DNA of 64,000 nucleotides. It comes from Acinetobacter colistiniresistens (GTDB taxonomy: Bacteria > Pseudomonadota > Gammaproteobacteria > Pseudomonadales > Moraxellaceae). Positions 15,206 to 28,714 of the stretch are shown here, in pieces. The position numbers and the translations under genes were made by a program. A model generated the notes under the pieces. That model was not told the origin of the DNA, did no database searches, and saw only the letters and a list, made by a program, of their open reading frames with translations. How positions within the stretch are numbered: position 1 is the stretch's first letter; the number at the start of each line of letters is the position of its first letter. The stretch is taken from NCBI RefSeq assembly GCF_024582815.1, contig NZ_CP102099.1:2170001-2234000 (forward strand). The letters run 5' to 3'.

Positions 15206-15930
15206 GCGCCTTTTAGTAATAGTCAGATATTATCCTTAAAGTGATTTAGTTTGAGCTTGTGCAGTGGGCTACATAGTTCATTTTAGTGATGTAGTTATTA
15301 TTCATTTTTGATAAACATTTAATTTAGTTTTTTGAAACCAAAGGGTGTTTAACGTGAGAGCTTGATAGATCATTTTAAGATGGTGGTGTATATATTGGTA
15401 AAGGATATTTTTATCAATAACTGTTACACTCCTTAATTAATGGGGCTTGGCAAAGTAGAAATAATAAAAAATGGAGAAAGGGACTGTTACATCGATAAAA
15501 ACATTTTTTATAACCTGCTGTAAAATTGAGCAGATGTAAGCTATATTGCCCAAAAACTGCAGTTAGATCGTTTTTAAATTTATAGTGCTTTGTTTTTGTA
15601 TTATTTTTTTATTTGATGTAGGTAATTTACATTGTATTACTCTGACATGTTGTTCATTTTTATATCTGGATTAGCATAAATTTTATTATAAAAGACTGAA
15701 CTGAGTGAAGATATAAAATATCTCCATTTATTATTAAAGCTTAGGTGATCTGGTCTTTTACCTTGCAGCTTAATATAATAAAATGTAATCTCTTCGGCGT
15801 GTTGTTATCTATTTTCTATGGGTGAAATTCAAAAACTAACAATTCTTTTCTCTAATAAGTAATTTTAAATAACCATCATGACTGAATTAGTTATTTGCTA
15901 AATCATAATTTTAACGAGCGTATCAACTGA
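15206..15930. other. 725-bp gene-free AT-rich intergenic region
   Basis: No open frame of note. The sequence is very AT-rich with several possible -10 elements (for example TATAAA near 15711) but no single convincing promoter. Its length before the synthetase gene suggests a complex or horizontally acquired control region. I saw no repeat or hairpin terminator that could be assigned with confidence. Confidence 0.4.
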
Positions 15931-17403
15931 ATGAATCAAATTGTGATAAACGAAAAAAATATTATTCGTGGTAAGCACCACCCAGAGTTTTTGCAGGAAG
16001 AAGTTTTAACCGATATTTTTGTCCAGACTGCGCAACGCCTCCCTCAAAAGACTGCCCTGATCGAAGCAGAGCAACAGATCAGTTATGCCGAGTTATATCA
16101 GCAAGCACTGGTCATGGCACAGCACTTAACCTTGAAGGGGGTTAAAGCGGGAGATATTGTTGGCTTGTGGTTACCGCGAGGAATTGAATTATTAAAATCC
16201 CAATTGGCGATCTGCCTTAGTGGCGCTGCATGGTTGCCTTTTGATATGGATACCCCGGCAGACCGGATTGCAGTGTGTCTTGACGATGCTGCGGCAGTCG
16301 GCATGATCACCACCGATGAGTGGTATGAACATTTGGCTGAAGTCCCACAAAGCAAGTGGACCAATACCGAATTACAACGCCCACTCGATCAGGCGGTTGA
16401 ACTCGCCAGAACCACACCTGAGCAACCCGCCTATATTATTTATACCTCAGGTTCGACAGGTAAACCGAAAGGGATTGTCATTACCCAGAAGAATATTTGC
16501 CATTTCCTGCGTAGTGAAAACAGTATCCTGGGCATTCAGGAGCAAGACAAGGTCTATCAAGGCTTCTCAGTGGCTTTTGACATGTCTTTTGAGGAAATCT
16601 GGCTGTCTTATCTGGTCGGTGCAACATTGTGGATAGCACCTAAATCACTGGTCAGTGATCCAGAACGCCTGTGTAAAACCTTGCAACAGCAACAGATCAC
16701 GGTTCTACATGCGGTGCCAACATTATTGGCTTTATTCCCGGAAGATGTACCGAATCTGCGCATCATCAATCTGGGTGGAGAAATGTGCCCGGATTCACTG
16801 GTCGATCGCTGGGCCTTAGCTCACCACCAAATGTTTAACACCTATGGGCCAACTGAAACCACGGTCTCTGCCAGTCTGGAACTGTTGCAGCGTGGCAAAC
16901 CAGTGACCATTGGCAAGCCTTTACCCAACTATGGCATGCTGGTCATCAATGCGGAGCGCGAATTGTTGCCGCAAGGAGAAACAGGGGAACTATGTATCTT
17001 TGGACCAAGTGTGGCCCCTGGCTATCTCGGACGTCCTGATCTGACCGCAGATAAATTTATTCAGAATCCATGGGCCAGTAACCCTGATGAAGAAAACCTG
17101 TATCGCACTGGGGATCTGGCCAAAATCGATGAATTTGGTCAGGTACATTGCTTAGGCCGTGCCGACGATCAGGTTAAAATCCGCGGCTTCCGGGTTGAAC
17201 TCGGTGAGATTGAAGCTGCGTTATGTGATCTGGATGGCATTGGCACCGCAGCCGTAATTCTACGTGCTGAAGACGGTATTGATCAGTTGATTGCCTTCAT
17301 TGCTCCTGAAATTGATGCCCAACAGGCCATTGAAATTAAACAGCTGCGTCATCACTCAGTCAGCGCTTGCCACCTTATATGGTGCCGAACCGCTTTGAAG
17401 TGA
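15931..17403 (+). CDS. Adenylation domain portion of the Pls/PosA-type synthetase
   Basis: This frame holds the amino-acid-activating domain. Core motifs are present: A3 YIIYTSGSTGKPKG (residues about 168-181), A4 region FSVAFDMSFEEIW with the aspartate that binds the substrate amino group, A5 FNTYGPTETTV, A7 YRTGDLAKID and A8 GRADDQVKIRGFRVELGEIE. The last 15 or so residues (SVSACHLIWCRTALK) are out of frame. The catalytic A10 lysine lies in the next frame, so this piece alone should not complete adenylation. Codons here are richer in CTG and ACC than in the neighbours. Confidence 0.85.
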   Translation: MNQIVINEKNIIRGKHHPEFLQEEVLTDIFVQTAQRLPQKTALIEAEQQISYAELYQQALVMAQHLTLKGVKAGDIVGLWLPRGIELLKSQLAICLSGAAWLPFDMDTPADRIAVCLDDAAAVGMITTDEWYEHLAEVPQSKWTNTELQRPLDQAVELARTTPEQPAYIIYTSGSTGKPKGIVITQKNICHFLRSENSILGIQEQDKVYQGFSVAFDMSFEEIWLSYLVGATLWIAPKSLVSDPERLCKTLQQQQITVLHAVPTLLALFPEDVPNLRIINLGGEMCPDSLVDRWALAHHQMFNTYGPTETTVSASLELLQRGKPVTIGKPLPNYGMLVINAERELLPQGETGELCIFGPSVAPGYLGRPDLTADKFIQNPWASNPDEENLYRTGDLAKIDEFGQVHCLGRADDQVKIRGFRVELGEIEAALCDLDGIGTAAVILRAEDGIDQLIAFIAPEIDAQQAIEIKQLRHHSVSACHLIWCRTALK

Positions 17404-19928
17404 TTGAAGAAGTACCACGCTTATTGTCAGGAAAAATTGACCGTAAGGCACTGAAAGCACGTCCATTAACCAGTGTGGTCGATCGGAGCGAATCAGATCA
17501 GCCGCAGAATCAGGCCGAAGAAATCTTATTTGGCATACTCAATCGTTTATTTCCAAATATCCCGATTAAATTAGATGCAGACTTCTTTGACGATCTCGGT
17601 GGACATTCACTGCTGGCTGCTGTACTGATTTCCAACCTACGCGAGCACCCTGAATACAGTCACCTAACCATTCAAAGCCTGTATCAGGCTCGCAGAGTGG
17701 GTGCCATTGCCGCACTGATGCTGGAACAACCTGAAGCATCATTATTCGATAGCCAGCTTGGGCAGGATAATCCACGGAATACCCGCTATAAATGGCTGTG
17801 TGGTCTGGCACAATTGGTGACGATTCCAGTGCTGATTTCGATCAACATCTTACAATGGCTGGCTCCGTTCTTTACCTACCATTATTTTACCGGCGGTACC
17901 CGAGACACCATTCCATCGGCGATTCTATTGTCATTACTGGTCTATATAACGGTGATTCTTGCCAGCTTTGCGCTGTCGATTACCGTAAAACGGGTGTTAT
18001 TACTCGGGATACCAGCAGGGCGTTACCCACTCTGGGGAATGACCTATTTCCGTTGGTGGCTGGCGGACCGAATCAGCAGCATTTCACCTGTATATCTCTT
18101 ATCGGGTTCCACCTTGCTGAATCTCTACCTCAAGGCACTGGGCGCAAAGATTGGCCATGATGTCAACATCAGTTCCGTACATATCCGGATGCCATCTTTA
18201 TTGACCATTGAAGATGGGGTCAGTATTGGTTCCAATGTCAATCTAGAGAATGCCAAAGTTGAACATGGTCATCTGGTATTGGGCTCAATCCAGCTCAAAC
18301 AAGACAGTTATGTTGGTTCCTATGCCGTTCTGGAAGAAAATACCGTATTAGAACCCCGTGCTCATGTAAATGCCTTAACTGCGATTGAATATGACACCAC
18401 AGTGCCAGCAGGGGAAATCTGGGACGGTACACCTGCGAAGAAAATTGGCCATGTTGACAGCCTGGAGCCATTGGCTGCACGCCCAAAACTGTCGTTTATC
18501 CGCAAAATCTCAGAATATGCCTACTATGCAATCAGTGCCTTATTCATTGCCTGTATCTTTTTTATCCCGATCTTTCCAAGCTTCCTGTTGGTGGACTGGT
18601 TAGATGTCAATATTTTTAATATTGATTCGAACAACCACTTACAGATTGCATTGTACTATTTCATTCTGGCGATTCCAGCCAGTGCGATGATGATGGTAAT
18701 TACCGCACTGATCTCTTCGGTCTTACGCAAAGTGGCTTTGCCGCGTTTAGAGACTGGCAGCTATGCCATTCATGGTGGTACTTATTACCGTAAATGGTTT
18801 GCATCACAGATTCTGGAAACCAGTTTACAAACCCTGCATGGTTTATTCGCCACCATTTACGCACCGACCTGGTTCCGTTTGTTGGGTGCCAAAGTCGGTA
18901 AGAACACTGAAATCTCAACAGCAAATGGAGTAATTCCTGAAATGCTGACCTTGGGAGAGGAAAGCTTTATTGCCGATGCCGTGATGTTGGGGGATGAGGA
19001 AATCAAGGGTGGCTGGATGACCTTAAAATCGACCCAGATTGGTAACCGCAGCTTTGTGGGGAATAGTGCCTATATCGCGGATGGGACGGTATTACCGGAC
19101 AATGTGTTGATTGGGGTGCAATCCAAAACACCAGATAACCGAGAAATGTATTCAGGTCAAACCTGGTTTGGTTCTCCACCTTTACTGCTGCCTGCACGTG
19201 AAGCCGCAGAACAATATCCAGATCACCTGACCTTTCAGCCGAGTTTCAAACGACGTCTGATGCGTGGTTTGATTGAAGGTCTACGGATCGTATTACCGGC
19301 AGCGCTGGCGATTGGTGTGGGTTATATGATCGTATTGGAAATTATCGATGTGATTAATAACTACAATATCGCGACAGGGCTATTGGCCTTGACTTTGGCG
19401 GGGTTACTCTATGGAGTGGGCTGCTTTGTGATCGTGGCGTTATTGAAGTGGATTCTAATTGGACGTTACCAACCACGTTCAGCACCGATGTGGACCATGT
19501 TTGTCTGGTTAAGTGAAGGGGTGACCAGTTTATATGAAGCGGTTGCCATCCCGAACTTCCTGAACTATCTCAGAGGCACACCAATGTTACCGTTCTTCCT
19601 GCGCCTGTTAGGGGTACGTATAGGTAAGGATGTGTATATGGATAGTGCAGATATCACTGAGTTTGACTGTGTTGAGATTGGAGATCGAGCGGAGTTTAAC
19701 AGTTTCTCTGGTCCACAGACGCACTTATTTGAAGACCGAATCATGAAAATTGGTCAGGTGAAAGTGGGCAATGATGTGGTGGTGAATGCGCGCAGTATTA
19801 TTTTATATAATGCCAATGTGAGTCATCATGCGGTATTGGGTCCACTGACCCTGGTGATGAAGGGTGAGAACATTCCAGCTAAATCGGCTTGGATTGGTTC
19901 ACCTGCTGTGCCTTGGAAATATAAGTAA
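17367..19928 (+). CDS. Carrier and membrane/hexapeptide portion of the Pls/PosA-type synthetase
   Basis: This frame begins mid-domain with A10 LLSGKIDRKALKA, then a carrier domain with the phosphopantetheine serine at DDLGGHSLLA (Ser about 81). Then come three repeats of a unit made of membrane helices plus hexapeptide-like turns: around LGAKIGHDVNISSVHIRMPS, LGAKVGKNTEISTANGVIPE and LGVRIGKDVYMDSADITEF. The three tandem units correspond to the C-terminal domains that carry out peptide bond formation in Pls enzymes. The apparent ATG is internal; the real start is at 15931. Confidence 0.85.
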   Translation: MPPYMVPNRFEVIEEVPRLLSGKIDRKALKARPLTSVVDRSESDQPQNQAEEILFGILNRLFPNIPIKLDADFFDDLGGHSLLAAVLISNLREHPEYSHLTIQSLYQARRVGAIAALMLEQPEASLFDSQLGQDNPRNTRYKWLCGLAQLVTIPVLISINILQWLAPFFTYHYFTGGTRDTIPSAILLSLLVYITVILASFALSITVKRVLLLGIPAGRYPLWGMTYFRWWLADRISSISPVYLLSGSTLLNLYLKALGAKIGHDVNISSVHIRMPSLLTIEDGVSIGSNVNLENAKVEHGHLVLGSIQLKQDSYVGSYAVLEENTVLEPRAHVNALTAIEYDTTVPAGEIWDGTPAKKIGHVDSLEPLAARPKLSFIRKISEYAYYAISALFIACIFFIPIFPSFLLVDWLDVNIFNIDSNNHLQIALYYFILAIPASAMMMVITALISSVLRKVALPRLETGSYAIHGGTYYRKWFASQILETSLQTLHGLFATIYAPTWFRLLGAKVGKNTEISTANGVIPEMLTLGEESFIADAVMLGDEEIKGGWMTLKSTQIGNRSFVGNSAYIADGTVLPDNVLIGVQSKTPDNREMYSGQTWFGSPPLLLPAREAAEQYPDHLTFQPSFKRRLMRGLIEGLRIVLPAALAIGVGYMIVLEIIDVINNYNIATGLLALTLAGLLYGVGCFVIVALLKWILIGRYQPRSAPMWTMFVWLSEGVTSLYEAVAIPNFLNYLRGTPMLPFFLRLLGVRIGKDVYMDSADITEFDCVEIGDRAEFNSFSGPQTHLFEDRIMKIGQVKVGNDVVVNARSIILYNANVSHHAVLGPLTLVMKGENIPAKSAWIGSPAVPWKYK

Positions 19929-19972
19929 TCTATGTTGAAAAAATGATGTTTCTAGACAAGATGAGCTAGGCT

Positions 19973-20010
19973 AAAGAGATAAGAGGATGAATTCTTCTTA
20001 TCTCTTTTTA
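19973..20010 (+). terminator. Terminator after the synthetase gene
   Basis: AAAGAGATAAGA (19973-19984) pairs perfectly with TCTTATCTCTTT (19996-20007) and ends in a short T-run. It separates the synthetase from the patatin gene. Confidence 0.75.
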
Positions 20011-20114
20011 TTAAAATGGATTTGAGAAAATTTCTATACGATAAAAATCAATGCAAGGTCTTATAGTTAAAGTCTGGCAGTAAAAATCCTATTAATGATT
20101 TTAGGTGGTGGATT

Positions 20115-21284
20115 ATGAATTTATTTCATCGGATTATTCAGGCGTTTAACTGGCACTCACGCCTTGAAGCTGTTCCAGAACGGATGACAGAAAAAGCAAT
20201 TATTTCAGGTATTCCCAATGCACGCGTTTGGTTTGACCATGATCTGACACCTTTTATTGAAGCGATACTTCGAAATAGTCAGCGCGAGTTAGAATCGCTC
20301 AGGCATGTATCTGAAAAATTACCTCCATTATATGCCTTGGCAATCTCGGGCGGAGGTGAAAATGGGGCTTTTGCCGCAGGTGTATTATGTGGACTGACGG
20401 CAAGTGGTAAACGGCATGACTTTAAGGTTGTTACAGGGGTAAGTGCGGGTGCATTGATTGCGCCATTTGCTTTTTTAGGCCCAGAATATGATGATATTTT
20501 GAGTACAGTCGCGACCTCCGCTGGACCGAATACGATATTTCGATATCGTAATATTGTCATGGGTTTAGTCAAAGATGGTATGGCCAGTAGCGAGCCACTT
20601 ACCCAGATTGTTGAAAAATACATAACACCTGAAGTTTTAGCTTTGATTGCACAAGAGCATGCCAAAGGTCGGATCTTACAAATTGGAACAACCGATATTG
20701 ATGCAGGACGTCAATCGATTTGGAATATGGGAGAAATTGCATCGAGCAATGCACCGAATGCAATAGAATTATTTCGTAAAATTATTATTGCATCTACCAG
20801 TATTCCTGGAGTGGTTTCACCCGTGATGATTGATGTGGAAGTGGGTGGGAAAAAATATCAGGAAATGCATGTCGATGGTGGGGTGGTCAATCAGGTCTTT
20901 TTATATCCTGCCTCACTGAAGAAGCGATTAGAGCAAATCATGGGTCAATCCATCAATCGCGAAGTGCATTTGTATGTCATCCGCAATGGCCGTTTTCGGC
21001 CGAGTTGGAATCAGACCAAGAGGAAAACTTTAAGTATTGGTGGACGGGCTATTCGGGCATTGATACAAAATCAAGGCATAAGTGATGTATTGCATCTTTA
21101 TCAAATTGCAAAGCAAGATCAGGTTGATTTTAATCTTGCTTATATTGATGAGGATTTTAAAGGAGAACATTTAAAACAGTTTGATACCGTTTATATGAGG
21201 AAGCTATATGAATATGGCTATCAGTTTGCAGCGACGCAACAACAATGGCATAAAGATTTACCGAATGACATTTTGATGAGATGA
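20115..21284 (+). CDS. Patatin-like phospholipase family protein
   Basis: A 389-residue protein with a patatin fold. It has an oxyanion glycine loop SGGGENGAFAAG (residues about 77-88), the nucleophile elbow TGVSAGALIAP (Ser of GxSxG), and the catalytic aspartate in VDGGVVNQ. Patatins are serine acyl hydrolases acting on phospholipids or other acyl esters. There is no clear signal peptide. A purine-rich AGGTGGTGG precedes the ATG. It sits between the synthetase and the convergent ureohydrolase operon and has its own control region behind a terminator, so a link to either unit is contextual only. Confidence 0.85.
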   Translation: MNLFHRIIQAFNWHSRLEAVPERMTEKAIISGIPNARVWFDHDLTPFIEAILRNSQRELESLRHVSEKLPPLYALAISGGGENGAFAAGVLCGLTASGKRHDFKVVTGVSAGALIAPFAFLGPEYDDILSTVATSAGPNTIFRYRNIVMGLVKDGMASSEPLTQIVEKYITPEVLALIAQEHAKGRILQIGTTDIDAGRQSIWNMGEIASSNAPNAIELFRKIIIASTSIPGVVSPVMIDVEVGGKKYQEMHVDGGVVNQVFLYPASLKKRLEQIMGQSINREVHLYVIRNGRFRPSWNQTKRKTLSIGGRAIRALIQNQGISDVLHLYQIAKQDQVDFNLAYIDEDFKGEHLKQFDTVYMRKLYEYGYQFAATQQQWHKDLPNDILMR

Positions 21285-21314
21285 ATTAAACGATAACGAT
21301 AAAAAAATATTGGG

Positions 21315-22202
21315 TTAATTCATCCATGCCGTATTGATCTCATGGACTAAACGTAGGTTGAGCGCTTTTTGCTGTAATTGCCAATTCTCAATCTCAGTCA
21401 CGGAGGGCTCTTGTTGTCCATCTGAGGCGGCCAAGAAGCGCTTAAAATAATTTTTATAATGATAGGCCGAGATATCACCGGTAATATCTGCAGCGATTAG
21501 TCGACCCTGACATGCCTGAATCAAACTTTGTAAATGTTGTTCGAGAAACAGACCTTGATCCCAGTTGGTCATGACCACTTCACTGGAGAGTACGTCTTTA
21601 TCAATGGATAAATAAATCGGGCTATCCTGATGGCTTATTTCGGCTAAGAAACTAGCGAGCAGGTCATCTGGATGGTTGAAATTATGCCAAACACCTTTAG
21701 CACCGATAAAGCGTGTCCATGAAGCATTTTTTTGTAAGCTCCAATAATGCAATTTACCTTTGCGTAACGGGGACCAATGGTTCTCCCAAGCATGTTGCCA
21801 GCCAATGTCATTCGAATGAATTCCAATAACATCGATACGTGCAATATGGGGCAATTGGCTTGCCCAGTACACCCATGAACCACAATGAATACCAAACGGA
21901 TAGCGCATGTTATCTGGGTGATTATCACAGACAATGAGATGAATGGGTCTGGTTATGACTTGTCTTGCAAGTAACAGTTGAGTGATGTGATGATAATCGC
22001 CACTTCCCATCAGCAGACATCCAAATTGTGTGGGAAGGTGTTGGTTGAGATAGTTGCCTAAGGCTTGAAATTGATTCCATTTACAGCCAAATCGAATCAT
22101 TTCCTGCCACGTACTGAGGTCTAGACGTAATGCACCTTCAAATTCACCAGCGGAGTCATCGAAATTTAATACAATCGGTCTTCTGTTATCCGTCAGCGTC
22201 AT
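21315..22202 (-). CDS. Arginase/ureohydrolase-fold protein
   Basis: A 295-residue protein with the metal-binding pattern of the ureohydrolase superfamily: GSGDYHH (residues about 62-68), CDNHPDN in place of DAHxD, and LSIDKDVLSS in place of SxDxDxxDP. Two manganese-type sites therefore look intact, but the surrounding sequence is far from true arginase or agmatinase, and the conserved substrate loop is not obvious. It ends the minus-strand operon and starts 2 bases after the GNAT gene stop. It may hydrolyse a guanidino or amide group on an amino-acid-derived intermediate; the substrate is unknown. Confidence 0.72.
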   Translation of the reverse strand: MTLTDNRRPIVLNFDDSAGEFEGALRLDLSTWQEMIRFGCKWNQFQALGNYLNQHLPTQFGCLLMGSGDYHHITQLLLARQVITRPIHLIVCDNHPDNMRYPFGIHCGSWVYWASQLPHIARIDVIGIHSNDIGWQHAWENHWSPLRKGKLHYWSLQKNASWTRFIGAKGVWHNFNHPDDLLASFLAEISHQDSPIYLSIDKDVLSSEVVMTNWDQGLFLEQHLQSLIQACQGRLIAADITGDISAYHYKNYFKRFLAASDGQQEPSVTEIENWQLQQKALNLRLVHEINTAWMN

Positions 22203-22204
22203 AA

Positions 22205-23266
22205 TTATTGTTCCTGTTTGCTGTGCCAGTGATGATCTGCTTCAAAAATGGGCCGCAATTTTTTTAGAATAAACCGTAAGATTGGGGAGTGCACCCATAC
22301 CAAATGTCGGGTAAAGGTAAATTGAGCACCTAACTGAGCTTTCACTTCGGGGTCTGTCCAGCCAGCAATGTAGAACTTTAAATCATGCTTCAGTGCATAA
22401 TCTAAATTCACAAACCAGCTGATGAAATATAAATTGTAATTTGTGGCCAAGGGATAATTTAGGCCAATATATTTATCCACCAGATTGCCTTGGTATTCAT
22501 AACACAGATTGTAACCAACAAGCTGTGTGTCAGCCCAATACAAAAACACTTTGCCGCCGCTGTTCTGGTCTTGCAAAATCTGATCAAAGAATTCGGCGCT
22601 GAGTAAGTCAAAATGTATGTCGCTTTGATGATAAACCGCGAGATAAAGTTGGTAGAGCTGTGCTCTAAACTCATTATCATTGAACTGTATATCGCCCGTG
22701 GACAATTGTTCGACATTGAGTTCATCCAAGCTTTTTAATTTTCTCTTTAAATTTTTACGGCGGCTGCGAGAAAGTCTGGAAAGATAATCTTCACGGCTGC
22801 TAAAGTCGATTGGTACATAGGCCAAAGCTTGTCCTTCAACAGAGAGAAATCCTCGCTGTTCAGCGTCTTGAATAAAGTGGTGGTTATAAGTATTTTCAGC
22901 CTCGCTCAATAAAGGTGAGCTTAAAGGCAGGTCTTTAATGATTCCTAATTTGATTTTTTGGTCATTGTTTTTAAGAAAACTTGTGATGGGTTCTACAGAG
23001 AGCTGATTCGGCAGTGGGCTGTATTCAGTCACGGTTGTGCCGATAAAACAGGTCTTCAGATGCAGAAGTTTGCCCCATAGTTTATAACCAGGTAATGCTT
23101 TAACTTTTTTATGAACATCGGTATCTAGCGTCGTCAATAAGTCAAAGTCGGTATAAAAGTACGGTAGAAAGTGCTGAGGAGAATGAACCTGAAAACTGAT
23201 GGGTGGATGCTGTAAAAAAGCATCCACCACGGCCTGAGGTTCTAACTGATTCAGGTTTTTGTCCAT
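22205..23266 (-). CDS. GNAT/FemAB-like acyltransferase
   Basis: A 353-residue protein with a C-terminal GNAT-type fold as in BioF2/FemAB-like proteins: SREDYLSRLSRSRRKNLKRK (phosphate-binding style basic segment), GGKVFLYWADTQLVGYNLCY (acetyltransferase core strand) and VDKYIGLNYPLATNYNLYF. Such proteins transfer acyl or aminoacyl groups onto amines, including peptidoglycan or lipid acceptors. It is nested in the operon between the aminotransferase (9-base gap) and the ureohydrolase-like gene (2-base gap), so the three are almost surely one pathway. Donor and acceptor are unknown. Confidence 0.7.
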   Translation of the reverse strand: MDKNLNQLEPQAVVDAFLQHPPISFQVHSPQHFLPYFYTDFDLLTTLDTDVHKKVKALPGYKLWGKLLHLKTCFIGTTVTEYSPLPNQLSVEPITSFLKNNDQKIKLGIIKDLPLSSPLLSEAENTYNHHFIQDAEQRGFLSVEGQALAYVPIDFSSREDYLSRLSRSRRKNLKRKLKSLDELNVEQLSTGDIQFNDNEFRAQLYQLYLAVYHQSDIHFDLLSAEFFDQILQDQNSGGKVFLYWADTQLVGYNLCYEYQGNLVDKYIGLNYPLATNYNLYFISWFVNLDYALKHDLKFYIAGWTDPEVKAQLGAQFTFTRHLVWVHSPILRFILKKLRPIFEADHHWHSKQEQ

Positions 23267-23275
23267 AAGTTGATT

Positions 23276-24715
23276 TTATAATTCCCGTTTTGCACGAACC
23301 AAGAGTTGTTCAAGCAAGACCATGGCTTGCTCAATTTCAGCACGTGAGATTTCGAGTGACGGTGCGAATGTGATCACATTCTTGTAATAACCGCCCACAT
23401 CCAGAACGAGACCACATTGTTGTCCCTGATATTCAAGCGTACCAGAAAGTCCGATATCGACCATCTTGTCCAATAATTCCTTATTTGGCGTAAAGCCATC
23501 AGCTTGGCAAATTTCAGCACGTAGCGCGAGACCAAGTCCGTCTACATCACCAATTTCAGGGTGACGTGATTGCAGGTCTTTGAGTCCTTCTAGGAAATAG
23601 GCACCACTTTCCATGATCTGCTTTTCATAATCCTTTTCAGCCAACATATTCATCACTTCTAGGCCAACCGCAGTACCAAGTGGGTTAGATGCGAAGGTTG
23701 AATGTGTTGAGCCAACAGGGAATACGTCTGGGTTAATCATTTCTTCCTTGGCCCAAATCCCTGCAAGCGGGTTTAATCCATTGGTCAGTGCTTTACCAAA
23801 TGCAACGACGTCAGGCGTAATATCAAAATGTTCAAATGACCATAATTTACCAGTACGGTAGAAGCCCATTTGGATTTCGTCTACAACCAGCAAAATACCG
23901 TGATCATCAAGGACTTTCTTTAAGCCTTTATAGAAATTTTTCGGTGGAATTACATAACCACCCGTACCCTGAATCGTTTCGATATAGAACGCGGCGAATT
24001 CACTTTCACGAACTTTTGGATCCCATACTCCGTGGTATTCATTTTCAAAAAGACGTGCGAACTCAGCAACTAACTTATCTGCATATTCTTCTGGTGTCAT
24101 GCCTTTCGGGCGACGGAAAGGATATGGGAATGGGATGAATTGCGCTCTTTCACCAAAATGACCATAACGACGGCGATAACGATAACTTGAGGTAATCGAC
24201 GATGCACCTAAGGTACGACCATGATAGCCTCCCTCGAAAGCAAACATTCGGCTTTTACCTTTGCAAAAGTTTCGAACAAGTTTTAGTGAATCTTCAATTG
24301 CCTGCGAGCCACCGACATTGTAATGAACTCGGCCTTCTACACCGGTCTTCTTGAACATGTCTTCAGCAATGACCTTACTCAGTTCAATTTTGGTTGGATG
24401 CAAGTATTGGCTGGCAATTTGAGGCAGTTTATGAATTTGATTGATTAATGCTTGATCTAAACGTGGATTTTTATAGCCAAAATTGACTGCTGAATACCAC
24501 ATTTGTAAATCTAAATAGGGAACGTTTTGATCATCGAAGATATAACTACCCTGACAATCGGTAAAGATTTTAGGTGGGTTAACATAATGTACGGTATCAC
24601 CATGTGAACAATACTTTGCTTCATCTGCTAAAAGCTGTGCCTCATTCAGTGGAACGCTGTCATCGAAATTCTTTGCAGAAGCAGGTTCATGCGTGAATTT
24701 ATGATTATTGTTCAT
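23276..24715 (-). CDS. Class III PLP-dependent aminotransferase
   Basis: A 479-residue fold-type I aminotransferase. Seen: VHYNVGGSQAIEDSLKLVRN (phosphate-binding start), YHGRTLGASS, the DEIQMGFYRTGK segment (PLP aspartate) and FGKALTNGLNPLAG with the Schiff-base lysine. The family moves amino groups between omega-amino acids or diamines and oxo acids, making or using GABA, ornithine, 2,4-diaminobutyrate, putrescine or similar. Sequence alone does not fix the substrate; the long N-terminus (about 60 residues before the family core) is unusual. It probably supplies or consumes the amino-acid unit handled by the acyltransferase downstream. Confidence 0.85.
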   Translation of the reverse strand: MNNNHKFTHEPASAKNFDDSVPLNEAQLLADEAKYCSHGDTVHYVNPPKIFTDCQGSYIFDDQNVPYLDLQMWYSAVNFGYKNPRLDQALINQIHKLPQIASQYLHPTKIELSKVIAEDMFKKTGVEGRVHYNVGGSQAIEDSLKLVRNFCKGKSRMFAFEGGYHGRTLGASSITSSYRYRRRYGHFGERAQFIPFPYPFRRPKGMTPEEYADKLVAEFARLFENEYHGVWDPKVRESEFAAFYIETIQGTGGYVIPPKNFYKGLKKVLDDHGILLVVDEIQMGFYRTGKLWSFEHFDITPDVVAFGKALTNGLNPLAGIWAKEEMINPDVFPVGSTHSTFASNPLGTAVGLEVMNMLAEKDYEKQIMESGAYFLEGLKDLQSRHPEIGDVDGLGLALRAEICQADGFTPNKELLDKMVDIGLSGTLEYQGQQCGLVLDVGGYYKNVITFAPSLEISRAEIEQAMVLLEQLLVRAKREL

Positions 24716-24790
24716 ACTTGTTTCCTTTGTGGTTGGTGTTTTCAGTATGTATGGTTTAAATACAGAGGCTGAGTGAATGGGGTGATAGAT

Positions 24791-25576
24791 TTAAAAGTTA
24801 TAGGTGATCCCGAAGGCAGGGGTGATATCTGTCCGTCGTTTAATCATCGGGCTTTTAAATTGTTCATTTGAGAGATAGTTGAATTCCACTGAGCTGAAAG
24901 CATTCCAGTGTTTAGACATTTCATAGTTAGCGGCAAAACTGACAAAGGGAAATACACTTTGGCCAGGTTGATAGGCTGAAATACCACTACGTTTGGACTC
25001 AGTTTCACTTACACCGTAGTAGTACTGATTGTATTGCGCGTTATTCCATTGAAAGCCCAATTCAGGATAGAAGGACCAATTGCCTTGATCAAATTCGGCC
25101 AGATAGGAACCTCGAAACAGGGTTCCTTTACTGCGCGATAAAGCATCTGTAGCCAAGCGTGCCTTAAATCCACCATAGGGGGTAATCCGCATGTAGCTTC
25201 CACCCGCCATAACTGACCATTTGCGTTTATCCAGTGAATGAAGTTCACCACTTGGGTCGTAGGAATTACTGTCATAGTGAACATTGAGGCGTAATTGGTT
25301 GTGATCATCCTTAAACAAATAGACGCCTGCATCGTCGCCTTCAATATAAAATTGATCATTATCATAGAAAAAAACAGGCAGTACACTCTGATAGGTTCTG
25401 TGACCTTTATACGCTTGGAAGTTTACCGAATAGTTAAAACCCATGGTTAAATCTGGTAACTCAGTGTCTTTCGCATAAGCTGGATAGTAAAAGCAGATAT
25501 TGCTAGTTACTATTGCTATGGTCATTTTTTTCAATGGTTTAAGCATATTCAGTCTTTGTATATTGATGCATGACAT
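24791..25576 (-). CDS. MipA/OmpV family outer membrane protein
   Basis: A 261-residue protein that looks like an MipA/OmpV-type barrel: DLTMGFNYSVNFQAYKGHRT at the mature start, alternating strands, and a C-terminal DITPAFGITYNF ending in the phenylalanine typical of outer-membrane barrels. A hydrophobic signal region (KKMTIAIVTSNICFYYPAYA) precedes the mature part; the ATG at 25549 gives a more usual signal peptide than the one at 25576. It is 75 bases upstream of the aminotransferase in the same direction and probably leads that operon, perhaps as the outer-membrane exit for the product. Confidence 0.78.
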   Translation of the reverse strand: MSCINIQRLNMLKPLKKMTIAIVTSNICFYYPAYAKDTELPDLTMGFNYSVNFQAYKGHRTYQSVLPVFFYDNDQFYIEGDDAGVYLFKDDHNQLRLNVHYDSNSYDPSGELHSLDKRKWSVMAGGSYMRITPYGGFKARLATDALSRSKGTLFRGSYLAEFDQGNWSFYPELGFQWNNAQYNQYYYGVSETESKRSGISAYQPGQSVFPFVSFAANYEMSKHWNAFSSVEFNYLSNEQFKSPMIKRRTDITPAFGITYNF

Positions 25577-25966
25577 CGTGATCTATGAAATATTTTTTTA
25601 ATATAAAAGTTGATTCTTACATAAATCTTAATGAAAAATTAAAACAAGCTTTATTTTGTATTTTTTGTGAAGTTTTATGGATTTTAAGCTGGTAAACATG
25701 CTTCCCAATAAAAACAATGCTTGAATTGCAGATATTTGTTTGATTTAATCTATTGATTGTCATTAGTTTATTTTTCATTTCAGTATGGCTTTGGGGTCTT
25801 AGAATAACTTGTTATTTAGAGCAATTCGATGAAGTGCTAGAATAATATAACATTTTATTCACACAGTTTTGGTATAAATTGAGAATATTTATAATTAAAG
25901 AAATTTTAAGATTTCGGGCCTAAAGTTAGCATGTAATTTTTATAAAAAGATTTTTAAATTATCCAT
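25577..25966. promoter_or_regulatory. 390-bp divergent control region between two operons
   Basis: This AT-rich region separates the MipA operon (minus) from the HAD operon (plus). It contains a perfect 14-bp palindrome AATAACTTGTTATT (25803-25816), a plausible regulator site, and a TAATATAAC box at about 25844-25852 that could serve a plus-strand promoter. No terminator lies inside. Divergent placement suggests shared control, but no known operator was recognised. Confidence 0.45.
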
Positions 25967-26698
25967 ATGAGGCATCTTATGTTCATGGTCAACCAGCATT
26001 ACGATACAGACCACACTGTACCCTGCCATATTTTATGTGACTTTGATGGAACAATTAGTTTAAAAGATACGACTGATCACTTGTTAGAGACATTTGCTAG
26101 ACCAGGCTGGCAAGATATTGAGGATGAATGGGTTGCTGGAAAAATTGGTTCTAAAGTTTGTATGCAAAAACAAATTGCCTTGCTGGATGTTTCCATTGAT
26201 GAGTTATATGAATGCCTAGATCATATTGAAATTGATTTAGGATTTCTGGAATTAGTCAAGATTACAGCACAATATAAAATTCCTTTAACAATCGTGAGTG
26301 ATGGGCTTGATCTGGTTATTCGTCATATTTTAAAACGCTATCGTTTAGACCATTTACCCATCATTGCCAATCATTTGGCTCAGTTAGATGAGCGAAGCTG
26401 GCAGCTCGAGTTTCCCAATGAGAAGTTGAGTTGTATCAGCCAAAGTGGCACTTGTAAGTGTAGTGTTGCACAACAGTATCCGAAGCAGCATATCATCTTA
26501 ATTGGTGATGGTCGTTCAGATTTCTGTCTTGCCGCTCAGGCGGATTATGTTTTTGCAAAAAAATCATTGATACAGCACTGTAAAGATCATCATATTTCTC
26601 ATACGACTTTTGAGAATTTCGAAGAAATTTATCATCCTTTGGCTAAACTGCTGAATAGTGATTTAGGGCAGGATAACTCTGTTATGGTGATAACATGA
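25967..26698 (+). CDS. HAD-IB family phosphatase (MtnX-like)
   Basis: A 243-residue haloacid dehalogenase-fold phosphatase: nucleophile motif CDFDGTISLKDTTD (residues about 23-36), motif II SDG in IVSDGLDLVIRHIL, and motif IV GDGRSDFCLA. It resembles the MtnX/PSP branch, which removes phosphate from small metabolites such as phosphoserine-like or diketo sugars. No strong ribosome binding site is seen, so the start may be 25967, 25979 or 25985. Its stop overlaps the next gene's ATG (ATGA), giving tight translational coupling to the alpha/beta hydrolase. The substrate is unknown. Confidence 0.75.
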   Translation: MRHLMFMVNQHYDTDHTVPCHILCDFDGTISLKDTTDHLLETFARPGWQDIEDEWVAGKIGSKVCMQKQIALLDVSIDELYECLDHIEIDLGFLELVKITAQYKIPLTIVSDGLDLVIRHILKRYRLDHLPIIANHLAQLDERSWQLEFPNEKLSCISQSGTCKCSVAQQYPKQHIILIGDGRSDFCLAAQADYVFAKKSLIQHCKDHHISHTTFENFEEIYHPLAKLLNSDLGQDNSVMVIT

Positions 26699-27582
26699 TA
26701 AAAGATCATTCATTTTTTCTCTCAGGCAACCGCACGGGCATTTTACTGATTCATGGATTGACTGGAACGCCGAATGAGATGAGAGGGATTGCACGAACAT
26801 TTCATCAAGCGGGTTATAGTGTATCTGGTGTTCAATTGGCTGGGCATTGTGGTGATGTGCAAGATCTGGTGAATAGTCGTTGGGAGGATTGGTTTGCGAG
26901 TGTAACTGCAGCGGCAGAAAAGTTAAAACAGCATACCGATGAAATTTTTGTTGCAGGGTTATCGATGGGAGCGTTATTGGCACTAAAATACGCCTCGGTC
27001 TATCCTGTCGCAGGCGTCATTGGTTATAGTCCTACGTTTCAATACGATGGCTGGAGTATTCCATTATGGTCAAAATTGTTGGCGCCGATTGTATTGCCGA
27101 GTGTGCATTATCTCAATATTTGTCGCAACAATACCTTTGATGAAGCTGAACCATATGGCATTAAAAATAAGGTCTTGCGTTCTCGTATTGTTCAGGCAAT
27201 GAATAGTGGGGAAAGCGGAGAGGCTGGCTTACCTGGAAATCCTTGGCATTCGCTGTTTCAGCTACAACGTTTGTCGCGCAATGTCCGTAAAAACTTGACA
27301 AATATTACTGCCCCGTGTCTTTTATTACATGCCTATGATGATGATATTTCTCATCGTAACAATAGCCAATTGGTTTATGACAAAGTCAAGGGACCTAAAC
27401 GTTTAGTCTGGCTATATAATAGTTATCACATGATTACGATTGATAATGATCGCAAGCAAGTGATTGAAGAGTCTCTGCATTTCATTCAACAATACCAGCG
27501 TCGGCACAATAGTGCACCTAAATCGCATTCAACCTCACAAGAATTCACTACCCCCCCGATTAAGGTGGGGCTGCTTGTATGA
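26695..27582 (+). CDS. Alpha/beta hydrolase, carboxylesterase/monoacylglycerol-lipase type
   Basis: A 295-residue serine hydrolase: oxyanion LLIHGLTGTPNEMRG, nucleophile AGLSMGALLALKYA (Ser of GLSMG), acid in HAYDDDIS, and His in NSYHMITIDNDRKQV. The arrangement fits the Est30/bacterial monoacylglycerol lipase branch, acting on short or medium acyl esters, thioesters or amides. No signal peptide, so cytosolic. It starts inside the HAD stop codon and its own stop overlaps the first SMR gene by 4 bases, placing it in a four-gene coupled operon. Confidence 0.82.
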   Translation: MIKDHSFFLSGNRTGILLIHGLTGTPNEMRGIARTFHQAGYSVSGVQLAGHCGDVQDLVNSRWEDWFASVTAAAEKLKQHTDEIFVAGLSMGALLALKYASVYPVAGVIGYSPTFQYDGWSIPLWSKLLAPIVLPSVHYLNICRNNTFDEAEPYGIKNKVLRSRIVQAMNSGESGEAGLPGNPWHSLFQLQRLSRNVRKNLTNITAPCLLLHAYDDDISHRNNSQLVYDKVKGPKRLVWLYNSYHMITIDNDRKQVIEESLHFIQQYQRRHNSAPKSHSTSQEFTTPPIKVGLLV

Positions 27583-27938
27583 ATGCAATTGTATTTGGCG
27601 TATGGATGTTAACTATTTTAATTGATACGGTTGGGCAGTTGGCGTTTAAGGCCGCTGCTCATGAAAGCAAAACCAATCAAGGGCTTGATCATTGGTGGTT
27701 CATGTTCAAGCGTCCGTGGTTATGGCTCGGTATTTTTTGTTATATCTTTGAATTTGTGGTTTGGCTGGCTTTTCTTTCATTGGTTCCACTCTCCATCGGC
27801 GTTATGCTGGGCTGCATTAATATTGTGGTAATTATGCTTGCTGGGCGATTATTCTTTAAAGAAAAACTGACCCGAAATCGATTAATTGGTGTGGTGTTGA
27901 TTGCATTAGGTGTCACCATTGTTGGGGTTGGTGCATGA
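27579..27938 (+). CDS. Small multidrug-resistance/EamA-like membrane protein, subunit 1
   Basis: A 119-residue four-helix inner-membrane protein of the SMR/EamA type. The first helix carries LIDTVGQLAFKAAA, with an aspartate where EmrE has its essential glutamate. The last helices (LFFKEKLTRNRLIGVVLIAL then GVTIVG) are typical. ArnE/ArnF-type and MdtIJ-type pairs have this size and work as heterodimers. It overlaps the next, similar gene by 4 bases, which strongly suggests a heterodimeric flippase or exporter. Confidence 0.75.
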   Translation: MNAIVFGVWMLTILIDTVGQLAFKAAAHESKTNQGLDHWWFMFKRPWLWLGIFCYIFEFVVWLAFLSLVPLSIGVMLGCINIVVIMLAGRLFFKEKLTRNRLIGVVLIALGVTIVGVGA

Positions 27939-28342
27939 AAAAGTTTTATATTATTGGCTTTCTGGTACTGATGCTGTTTGATACTTTAGCGCAGATCAGT
28001 TTTAAATTTGCGTCTGTTCATGCGATGCCTTTAACTTTTGATTGGGCATGGTTGGTTCGTGTATTTAGTCATCCTTGGATTTATGGTGCGTTCATTGGAT
28101 ATCTGGGGGCTTTCTTTATCTGGATGAATTTACTTAAACATGCCCCCATTGGTCCAGCTTTTGCTGCATCACATTTAGAATTAATTAGTGTGATGTTTTT
28201 GTCTATCTGGTTATTCAATGAGCCACTTACATTCACCAAAGTTGCAGGTGCCATTCTGATTTTTGCTGGAGTCTGTTTTCTAGCTAAAGATGAAGAGAGT
28301 CATAGCCAAGAAGCTGATCTCAGCAAAGAGGTTGAGAGTTAA
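27935..28342 (+). CDS. Small multidrug-resistance/EamA-like membrane protein, subunit 2
   Basis: A 135-residue partner of the preceding gene with the same four-helix plan and helix-1 signature LMLFDTLAQISFKFAS. The fourth helix has FNEPLTFTKVAGAILIFAGV. It has a 15-20-residue acidic C-terminal tail (KDEESHSQEADLSKEVES) absent from subunit 1. The two D-T-x-x-Q helices point to a heterodimer that moves a polar or amphipathic cargo across the inner membrane. It ends the operon; no obvious terminator follows. Confidence 0.75.
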   Translation: MKKFYIIGFLVLMLFDTLAQISFKFASVHAMPLTFDWAWLVRVFSHPWIYGAFIGYLGAFFIWMNLLKHAPIGPAFAASHLELISVMFLSIWLFNEPLTFTKVAGAILIFAGVCFLAKDEESHSQEADLSKEVES

Positions 28343-28477
28343 TGACTCGACCCACGGGTTGTTGATAGAACGTCATATACAAAGAAATTGCGCAAACGAA
28401 TTCATAAGTTCGTCATAACCCTATGAAATAATCTGTTTTCTAAGCTAAATTTATTCAATGATAGATAGAAAAGTTGT

Positions 28478-28714
28478 ATGACGGATGAGTTGTTTGTTGA
28501 TTTTGAGAAGTCAAAGATCATAGAAAAAAATGAACATGGTTTATTGGAAGGGTATCACTTCTATTTGTTTATGGATGATCGGGCTGACGAATATATCAGT
28601 CGATTGAATTACATCAAAAAAAATATTCCTGAAACCGAGTATCTATCCTACGGCGCCGTAAATATCGACCAATTGATCATGAAGCTAGCAGAATTGTATA
28701 AGTACAAAAAATGA
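28478..28714 (+). CDS. Hypothetical protein, 78 aa
   Basis: I do not recognise this protein. It is acidic and soluble, with no signal peptide (MTDELFVDFEKSKIIEKNEH start, IDQLIMKLAELYKYKK end). It lies 136 bases behind the SMR pair, in the same direction and convergent with xseB, so it could be the last gene of that operon or separate. No clear ribosome binding site is seen. Confidence 0.45.
   Translation: MTDELFVDFEKSKIIEKNEHGLLEGYHFYLFMDDRADEYISRLNYIKKNIPETEYLSYGAVNIDQLIMKLAELYKYKK

What the first reader, a model, noticed from the sequence alone, without database searches (positions are those of the whole stretch)
15931..28342. Candidate uncharacterised biosynthesis/export system: Pls/PosA-type synthetase with two divergent operons
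Seen: a Pls/PosA-type adenylation-carrier-hexapeptide synthetase, a patatin, a minus operon (MipA/OmpV - class III aminotransferase - GNAT/FemAB-like - ureohydrolase fold) and a divergent plus operon (HAD phosphatase - alpha/beta hydrolase - SMR pair) with 2-9-base gaps or ATGA overlaps. Known: Pls-family enzymes polymerise basic amino acids such as lysine; class III aminotransferases make diamino acids or use omega-amines; SMR/ArnEF-type pairs flip or export small polar cargo. Inference: the set makes an amino-acid- or polyamine-derived polymer or envelope conjugate, trimmed by hydrolases and exported through an SMR pair and a MipA barrel. I know of no described system with this exact gene set.
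Basis: partly seen in the sequence, partly recalled or inferred. Interest (0 to 1): 0.8.

Follow-up and report, generated by a model that had tools for sequence, protein, structure and literature searches.

The report
Travelling eight-gene cassette, probably envelope-modifying
Two divergent gene clusters in this Acinetobacter genome form one travelling eight-gene set shared with distant Proteobacteria, probably making and flipping an unknown amine-bearing envelope molecule; the polymer synthetase beside it is an unrelated, frame-split copy of a known gene.

Summary
The synthetase (15931-19928) is a frame-split duplicate of posA, the known delta-poly-ornithine synthetase: 15 of 19 synthetase genomes lack the cassette GNAT, and in the three others with both it is unlinked. 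The patatin was found in 1 of 119 Acinetobacter genomes.

The two operons (21315-28342) are one cassette: MipA, class III PLP enzyme (AT3), FemX/MprF-fold twin GNAT, ureohydrolase | HAD-IB phosphatase, monoacylglycerol-lipase-like hydrolase, two SMR proteins; complete in 14 of 17 GNAT-positive genomes (119 searched). AT3 was found only in GNAT-positive genomes. Seven kernel genes recur in 21 of 27 loci examined outside Acinetobacter, often with a histidine kinase, a DegT aminotransferase or lipid genes.

In the window and four relatives the mipA promoter carries an 11-bp-period half-site array; the derived pattern also precedes eptA in 30 of 30 loci and a naxD-like deacetylase in 7 of 9. The other cassettes have it weakly or not.

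Best reading: a pathway that makes, flips and displays an amine-bearing envelope lipid or conjugate, under PmrA-type control here. Product unknown. I found no description, but seven paper searches failed.

The parts
21315..22202 (-). ureohydrolase-superfamily enzyme (arginase fold), metal ligands kept
22205..23266 (-). twin-GNAT transferase of the FemABX/MprF fold (FemAB_like)
23276..24715 (-). AT3: class III PLP enzyme, most conserved member of the cassette
   Evidence: Pfam Aminotran_3 247.5 bits; mean identity 89% across 15 Acinetobacter cassettes against 48-71% for the other seven; 67.5-76.5% identical to Rhizobium, Xanthomonas and Bartonella orthologues; C-terminal Arg of relatives replaced by Thr449 in 10 of 10 orthologues aligned
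24791..25576 (-). MipA/OmpV-family outer-membrane protein
   Evidence: Pfam MipA 144.4 bits; in all 14 complete Acinetobacter cassettes; also in 7 of 27 loci outside the genus: L093, L094, L103, L104, L124, L127, L128
25616..25654 (-). four half-sites with 11-bp period (PmrA-box-like array) upstream of mipA
   Evidence: k=4 array reached by 1 of 300 shuffles in the window; the derived 17-base pattern occurs before eptA in 30 of 30 and ydjC in 7 of 9 loci, reversed control 0; genome-wide it is no more frequent than its control, 29 and 29
25967..26698 (+). MtnX-like HAD-IB phosphatase
   Evidence: TIGR01489 110.6 over 81.55; TIGR03333 MtnX 108.5 under 303.2
26695..27582 (+). alpha/beta hydrolase, closest to monoacylglycerol lipases
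   Evidence: PDB thermostable monoacylglycerol lipase E 1.6e-37; Ser, Asp and His motifs kept here; nucleophile Cys in 6 Rhizobiales orthologues
27579..27938 (+). SMR1, first half of a paired small EamA/SMR-type transporter
   Evidence: Pfam EamA 35.7 over 28.2; hydrophobic segments; pair conserved
27935..28342 (+). SMR2, second half of the pair, ArnF-like
   Evidence: NCBIfam ArnF 33.4 bits, under its cut-off 99; overlaps SMR1 by 4 bases
15931..17403 (+). NOT part of the cassette: posA duplicate, adenylation half
   Evidence: 852 bits to PDB 8g95 (PosA adenylation domain); 7 of 7 named pocket residues kept
17367..19928 (+). NOT part of the cassette: posA duplicate, carrier and terminal membrane/hexapeptide half, other frame
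   Evidence: TIGR02353 730.7 over 423.1; part of a 4,026-base alignment to the copy at G000:C1 3.46 Mb
20115..21284 (+). NOT part of the cassette: patatin-like phospholipase
   Evidence: Pfam Patatin 71 bits; found in 1 of 119 Acinetobacter genomes

Best explanation
The eight genes at 21315-28342 are one horizontally moving envelope-modification cassette. Inferred working: AT3 forms or interconverts an amine that probably lacks the usual alpha-carboxylate anchor; the HAD phosphatase removes a phosphate from the head group or its precursor; the FemX/MprF-like twin GNAT joins an acyl or aminoacyl group to it, with the ureohydrolase and the lipase-like hydrolase (possibly an acyltransferase) trimming or transferring; the SMR1/SMR2 pair, resembling the ArnE/ArnF flippase, moves the finished lipid or lipid-linked molecule across the inner membrane, and MipA serves it at the outer membrane. 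Many relatives add a DegT aminotransferase directly behind the SMR pair; the window lacks it there. In the window and its close relatives the cassette is probably switched on with the PmrA regulon, as many alpha-proteobacterial and Pseudomonas-type versions sit beside their own histidine kinase. Shown: gene content, linkage, coinheritance, folds (predicted), catalytic residues, promoter array. Inferred: substrate, product, direction of transport, regulation by PmrA, role against cationic peptides.
For: Linkage: complete in 14 of 17 genomes, in two arrangements (11 divergent, 3 convergent); AT3 16 of 16 inside the GNAT set; pairwise distances of the eight genes correlate, r 0.65-0.90. Breadth: all seven kernel genes in 21 of 27 non-Acinetobacter loci. 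Lipid link: desaturase and cyclopropane synthase inside the operon in Rhizobium Pop5, R. acidisoli and Phyllobacterium, FabF-like KS and ACP in Xanthomonas sacchari, G1048 and G485, MBOAT in two Bartonella plasmids, hydrolase closest to monoacylglycerol lipase. Envelope link: MprF/FemX fold, MipA in two classes, histidine kinase adjacent or fused in 14 of 27 loci, DegT (superfamily of ArnB, recalled) directly behind the SMR pair in many. Regulation: a pattern read from the cassette promoter also precedes eptA in 30 of 30 and a YdjC deacetylase in 7 of 9 loci, control 0; array strong in window, L002, L001, L044, L046.
Against: No enzyme activity, product or phenotype is known. The half-site array is weak (L047, L051) or absent (L048, L049, L050, L052, L056, L060) in 8 of 13 divergent promoters and mostly absent in the three convergent cassettes; the 17-base pattern occurs 29 times in the genome, as often as its reversed control, and the genes behind most of those places have no envelope-modification link; the second half-site before mipA is imperfect; a scan with a weight matrix from eptA and ydjC sites did not single out the window promoter (14 of 150 shuffles as good); the array idea was prompted by the data. 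Fatty-acid genes are optional and were not found in the Acinetobacter loci. Bartonella keeps only AT3-GNAT-ureohydrolase, and G693 (L090) has only GNAT, ureohydrolase and the SMR pair at that place. SMR2 scores below the ArnF cut-off. MacB/TolC-type export genes near some loci would also fit a secreted small molecule.
Confidence: 0.45

Rival explanations
1. A diffusible small natural product (an amine or amidine antimetabolite) is made by AT3, phosphatase, GNAT and ureohydrolase and exported by the SMR pair; kinases and MipA serve regulation and self-protection.
For: Patchy distribution, different flanks and plasmid carriage; KS, ACP and DegT in several versions; TolC/MacB genes near several loci; ureohydrolase fold relatives include proclavaminate amidinohydrolase.
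Against: No NRPS, ligase or resistance gene in the kernel; desaturase and cyclopropane synthase inside operons; FemX/MprF fold; half-site pattern shared with lipid A modification genes.
Confidence: 0.25
2. A peptidoglycan-modifying set: AT3 acts as racemase supplying a D-amino acid, the FemX-like GNAT adds it to a lipid-linked precursor, MipA (named for its interaction with MltA, recalled) couples it to wall growth.
For: AT3's nearest solved relatives include Ala/Ser and broad amino-acid racemases; GNAT's best folds include FemX; MipA present in all 14 complete Acinetobacter cassettes.
Against: AT3 has Thr where the aligned racemases have Arg; lipid enzymes and lipase-like hydrolase unexplained; MipA not found in 20 of 27 non-Acinetobacter loci (some are cut by contig ends).
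Confidence: 0.12
3. Polyamine or guanidino-compound detoxification: ureohydrolase and aminotransferase degrade, GNAT modifies, SMR pair exports.
For: Arginase fold with intact metal site; class III enzymes include polyamine transaminases; SMR pairs such as MdtIJ export spermidine (recalled).
Against: AT3 lacks the usual Arg; does not explain phosphatase, lipase-like hydrolase, desaturase, cyclopropane synthase or MipA.
Confidence: 0.1
4. One reading: the Pls/PosA synthetase makes a basic-amino-acid polymer that the two operons process and export.
For: Physical adjacency in the window and, by a 34-residue piece at the contig end, in A. colistiniresistens NIPH 2036 (L002); ornithine pocket residues 7 of 7 kept.
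Against: 15 of 19 synthetase genomes lack the cassette GNAT and 13 of 17 GNAT genomes lack the synthetase; unlinked in the three others with both; the window copy is a near-identical duplicate and is split in two frames.
Confidence: 0.03

Closest known systems
PosA, delta-poly-L-ornithine synthetase of A. baumannii (PMC10522769)
   Same: The window synthetase is its close homologue: adenylation domain 852 bits to 8g95, all seven named pocket residues kept.
   Different: Split in two frames, a duplicate, and unrelated to the cassette.
Arn (L-Ara4N) pathway, ArnE/ArnF flippase
   Same: Paired small SMR-type membrane proteins; SMR2 hits ArnF; a DegT aminotransferase (ArnB superfamily, recalled) sits behind the pair in many relatives; probable regulation in common with lipid A modification genes.
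   Different: ArnF score 33.4 against cut-off 99; DegT's ArnB-type match (PRK11658) 45.2 against 631; no ArnA, ArnC, ArnD or ArnT in the cassette.
MprF / LpiA aminoacyl-phosphatidylglycerol synthases
   Different: No fused membrane flippase domain; 353 residues, no transmembrane segment by hydropathy; 10-12% identity in the rows listed.
FemABX aminoacyl transferases
   Same: Fold and Pfam FemAB_like.
   Different: Genomic context is not peptidoglycan synthesis; substrate untested.
Ureohydrolases (agmatinase, guanidinopropionase, formimidoylglutamase)
   Same: Fold, metal ligands and position of the catalytic His (equivalence to arginase H141 recalled).
   Different: Own family, no PDB sequence match at E below 0.1; PFGIHCGSW in place of the arginase substrate loop (loop motif recalled).

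Membership tests
PosA / Pls family (TIGR02353) | adenylation, carrier and TIGR02353 terminal domain | tested here: met
   TIGR01733 392.1 over 317.4; PP-binding 24.8 over 20.8; TIGR02353 730.7 over 423.1, but in two frames
PosA / Pls family (TIGR02353) | ornithine pocket residues D217, M218, E221, H260, N280, T304, S313 | tested here: met
   7 of 7 identical; residues from PMC10522769 passages
PosA / Pls family (TIGR02353) | single intact reading frame | tested here: not met
   two overlapping ORFs here and a split second copy; 15 of 18 other genomes have one frame of 1,328-1,373 aa
Arn pathway | ArnF equivalog score | tested here: not met
   33.4 bits, cut-off 99
Arn pathway | ArnA, ArnC, ArnD, ArnT partners in the cluster | tested here: not met
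   none among the eight genes; elsewhere in the genome not tested
MprF | twin-GNAT catalytic domain fold | tested here: met
MprF | N-terminal membrane flippase domain | tested here: not met
   no hydrophobic segment in 353 aa
FemABX | FemAB_like domain over cut-off | tested here: met
   46.3 over 27
FemABX | aminoacyl-tRNA-dependent transfer | not testable with these tools
   needs enzyme assay
Ureohydrolase superfamily | Arginase domain and two-metal ligands | tested here: met
Class III aminotransferase | PLP Lys and Asp | tested here: met
   K308 and D279 invariant in 15 sequences; their roles recalled
Class III aminotransferase | C-terminal Arg before the PPL/PSL motif | tested here: not met
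   Thr449 in 10 of 10 AT3; Arg at that column in the aligned chains 9wqz, 9wrf, 5ll2 and 7vno; role of the Arg recalled
MtnX phosphatase | TIGR03333 equivalog score | tested here: not met
   108.5, cut-off 303.2
PmrA regulon | tandem half-sites 11 bp apart before the gene | tested here: inconclusive
   strong in 5 of 13 divergent promoters, weak in 2, absent in 6
PmrA regulon | PmrA binding and PmrAB-dependent expression | not testable with these tools
   needs EMSA and RNA-seq

The most novel reading that the evidence does not exclude
An undescribed class of amine-bearing membrane lipid (or lipid-linked envelope conjugate) is made, flipped and displayed by this eight-gene cassette (nine with DegT in other lineages), moves between Alpha- and Gammaproteobacteria on chromosomes and on plasmids, some predicted conjugative, and in part of Acinetobacter has been wired into the PmrA-type response beside eptA and a naxD-like deacetylase.
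Probability: 0.33. Interest if true: 0.85.

Novelty: new variant of a known kind. Interest (0 to 1): 0.6.

Why it matters
If right, it adds an unrecognised envelope-modification route, distinct from EptA, Arn and MprF, to bacteria that include opportunistic Acinetobacter and plant-associated Rhizobiales, and gives a defined set of genes for lipidomics. It would offer a testable contributor to intrinsic responses to cationic peptides in species that carry it. It also corrects a natural misreading: the adjacent posA copy is a passenger.

Tried and rejected
Rejected: synthetase as part of the system; patatin as part of it and as CBASS effector (NCBIfam CBASS lipase 27.6 under 200, weak PADLOC phospholipase hits); a near copy of 20000-28500 in the plasmid collection (no match); AT3 DNA in the E. 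coli collection (no distant match); MtnX itself for the phosphatase. Sequence searches for solved relatives of the ureohydrolase and GNAT found nothing credible, so folds were used. A profile search of AT3 in the PDB at 1e-80 gave nothing. A weight-matrix scan with the 17-base box was mixed: 0 to 4 of 150 shuffles as good for L001, L044, L051, L047, L057-HAD and L059-HAD, 8 of 150 or more for the other 13 regions, the window itself 14 of 150. Families not in the VIA-align lists are not excluded.

Literature: working searches were (7, 44, 59 and 78 returned no paper); searches failed, and met the cap. So 'not described' rests on few searches. PMC10522769: search listing and passages only. The PmrA-box consensus, the PmrB link of NaxD, the roles of MprF, MdtIJ, MipA and ArnB, and the roles of the class III Lys, Asp and Arg are recalled.

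Full report
Observation. The synthetase is in two overlapping frames (15931-17403 and 17367-19928). Spacing is as described except for a 75-base gap between AT3 and MipA.

The synthetase is posA. Its adenylation half matches PDB 8g95, the PosA adenylation domain, with 852 bits, and seven of seven pocket residues named in PMC10522769 (passages) are identical. In 119 Acinetobacter genomes its C-terminal half was found in 19 and the cassette GNAT in 17; both in 4 (the window's genome, G053, G100, G102), 2.7 expected. In G053 and G100 they lie 0.54 and 1.6 Mb apart, in G102 on different contigs. None of the 18 synthetase loci fetched from other genomes shows patatin, xseA or cassette genes at E <= 1e-15 in the 15.6-20 kb taken. 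The window copy is covered by a 4,026-base alignment, 99.58% identical, to a copy near 3.46 Mb of the same genome, whose neighbourhood has the 38% permease homologue seen at 6 of the 18 other loci. Both copies are interrupted, and so are those of G024, G100 and G116. The patatin was found in 1 of 119 genomes.

The two operons are one cassette. Around the 18 GNAT places in 17 genomes, plus two named contigs (L001 Acinetobacter nosocomialis NIPH 2119, L002 A. colistiniresistens NIPH 2036), tblastn shows all eight genes in 14 of 17 genomes, the window's own included, and in both named contigs. Exceptions: G100 shows GNAT and ureohydrolase only; G101 lacks MipA and HAD and has a partial hydrolase; G102 is cut by a contig end. 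The arrangement is divergent in 11 of 14 and convergent in 3 (G103, G026, G099). The G103 AT3 frame contains one stop. AT3 at E <= 1e-150 was found in 16 of 119 genomes, all among the 17. Distances of the eight genes across 15 cassettes correlate (r 0.65-0.90; part of this is shared ancestry). AT3 is far more conserved (mean identity 89%) than the rest (48-71%). A DegT aminotransferase follows SMR2 in 8 of 19 Acinetobacter loci (L047-L053, L060) and was not found in the others; the window has no room for it before xseA, and whether the window's genome has one elsewhere was not tested. Apart from DegT no non-cassette family is shared by more than 4 of the 19 loci, so insertion sites differ.

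Outside Acinetobacter the ureohydrolase marker was found in 3 of 369 genomes of the class, 7 of 390 of the order and 16 of 398 of the phylum, the window's own genome included each time and the samples overlapping, and in 49 plasmid records; AT3 in 34 plasmid records. I examined 27 loci: all 17 genome loci from those three searches (L070, L071, L090-L104) and 10 of the plasmid records (L065-L069, L124-L128). They were chosen by a kernel gene and several share a genus, so they are not independent. 21 of 27 hold all seven kernel genes (HAD, AT3, GNAT, ureohydrolase, hydrolase, two SMR; by BLAST, by annotation; the Roseomonas AT3 is annotated as two ORFs). The six others: two Bartonella plasmids (AT3, GNAT, ureohydrolase only), L071 and L090 (partial), L099 and L102 (contig ends). 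The genus of the G genomes is not given; 'Pseudomonas-type' is my inference from their order and from protein names. Accessories: MipA in 7 of 27 (L093, L094, L103, L104, L124, L127, L128), DegT in 11 (L066, L068, L070, L071, L095-L101), KS with ACP in 3 (L066, L071, L097; a distant KS, 34-36%, also some 4-6 kb off in L091 and L092), desaturase plus cyclopropane synthase in 3 (L067, L127, L128), and a histidine kinase adjacent or fused in 14 (L067, L068, L070, L093-L096, L103, L104, L124-L128; in L067, L124-L126 and L128 annotated only as 'ATP-binding protein' next to a response regulator).

Regulation. An alignment of seven divergent promoters showed a conserved spaced repeat, CTTA-N7-CTTAA on the + strand. 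In 13 divergent promoters it is present in 8: the seven used to see it, and 1 of 6 not used (L047; not L049, L050, L052, L056, L060). Read on the mipA strand as HTTAAG-N7-TAAG it occurs 29 times in the whole genome, no more than its reversed control (29). 14 of the 29 have a same-strand ORF of 100 aa or more starting within 150 nt: besides mipA they include the only gene with an EptA N-terminal domain (45 nt), a YdjC-family deacetylase (93 nt) and a PAP2 phosphatase (43.9 bits to the PAP2 lipid A phosphatase model, cut-off 275), but also a citrate transporter, trigger factor, a TonB receptor, FecCD, a ParA-type ATPase and a DUF2062 protein. In the 30 eptA loci returned (of 59 matches in 52 of 60 genomes; the window's own among them) the pattern is upstream in 30 of 30, and in 7 of 9 ydjC loci; reversed control 0 in both. 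It therefore captures what I take, from recall, to be the PmrA box. In the cassette promoter there are four such half-sites at 11-bp period (25616-25654): 0-1 of 300 shuffles do as well for window, L002, L001, L044, L046; 8 and 9 of 300 for L051 and L047; 58 or more of 300 for L048, L049, L050, L052, L056, L060; and 10 to 260 of 300 for the six upstream regions of the three convergent cassettes. So the wiring, if real, is confined to part of the genus. The five cassettes with the strong array lack DegT (the window by its gene list; the others).

Interpretation. A transaminase-like enzyme, phosphatase, acyl or aminoacyl transferase, amidine or amide hydrolase, lipase-like enzyme, paired SMR transporter and outer-membrane protein, with optional DegT, fatty-acid enzymes and kinase control, fit best a pathway that makes and flips an amine-bearing envelope lipid or conjugate. 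The chemical identity is open. Rivals are a secreted small molecule, a peptidoglycan modification and polyamine handling.

Novelty. I found no description of this gene set in the searches that worked; seven further searches failed, so this is weak evidence of novelty. It is filed as a new variant of a known kind (envelope amine modification with an SMR-type flippase) because none of Arn, MprF or FemABX fits it in full.

Noticed in passing
window 15894-19917 and G000:C1 about 3.4619-3.4659 Mb: posA is present twice at 99.58% identity and each copy is split in frame at a different place; posA is also split or partly deleted in G024, G100 and G116, so the gene seems to be decaying repeatedly.
   Followed up: partly
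window 20115-21284: Patatin-like phospholipase with no E<=1e-60 match in 118 other Acinetobacter genomes, though 97% identical in A. colistiniresistens NIPH 2036; weak similarity to CBASS phospholipase effectors.
   Followed up: partly
L067, L124-L128 alpha/beta hydrolase: Nucleophile Ser replaced by Cys in all six Rhizobiales cassettes, suggesting acyl transfer rather than hydrolysis.
   Followed up: partly
L047-L053, L060: DegT aminotransferase directly behind SMR2 in 8 of 19 Acinetobacter loci, absent from those with the strong promoter array: two lineages of the cassette.
   Followed up: partly
L065, L069 (Bartonella plasmids): A stripped version, AT3-GNAT-ureohydrolase next to an MBOAT acyltransferase and an AlgX-like protein, may show the minimal biosynthetic core.
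   Followed up: no
G026:C14 154801 and 243456 (L057, L058): Two cassettes with identical scores in opposite orientation on one contig; the genome is flagged 9% contaminated, so duplication or assembly artefact is open.
   Followed up: no
G000:C1:1534043 (L145), 3376568 (L158): PAP2 phosphatase and YdjC deacetylase genes preceded by PmrA-box-like sites; possible regulon markers in this genome.
   Followed up: partly
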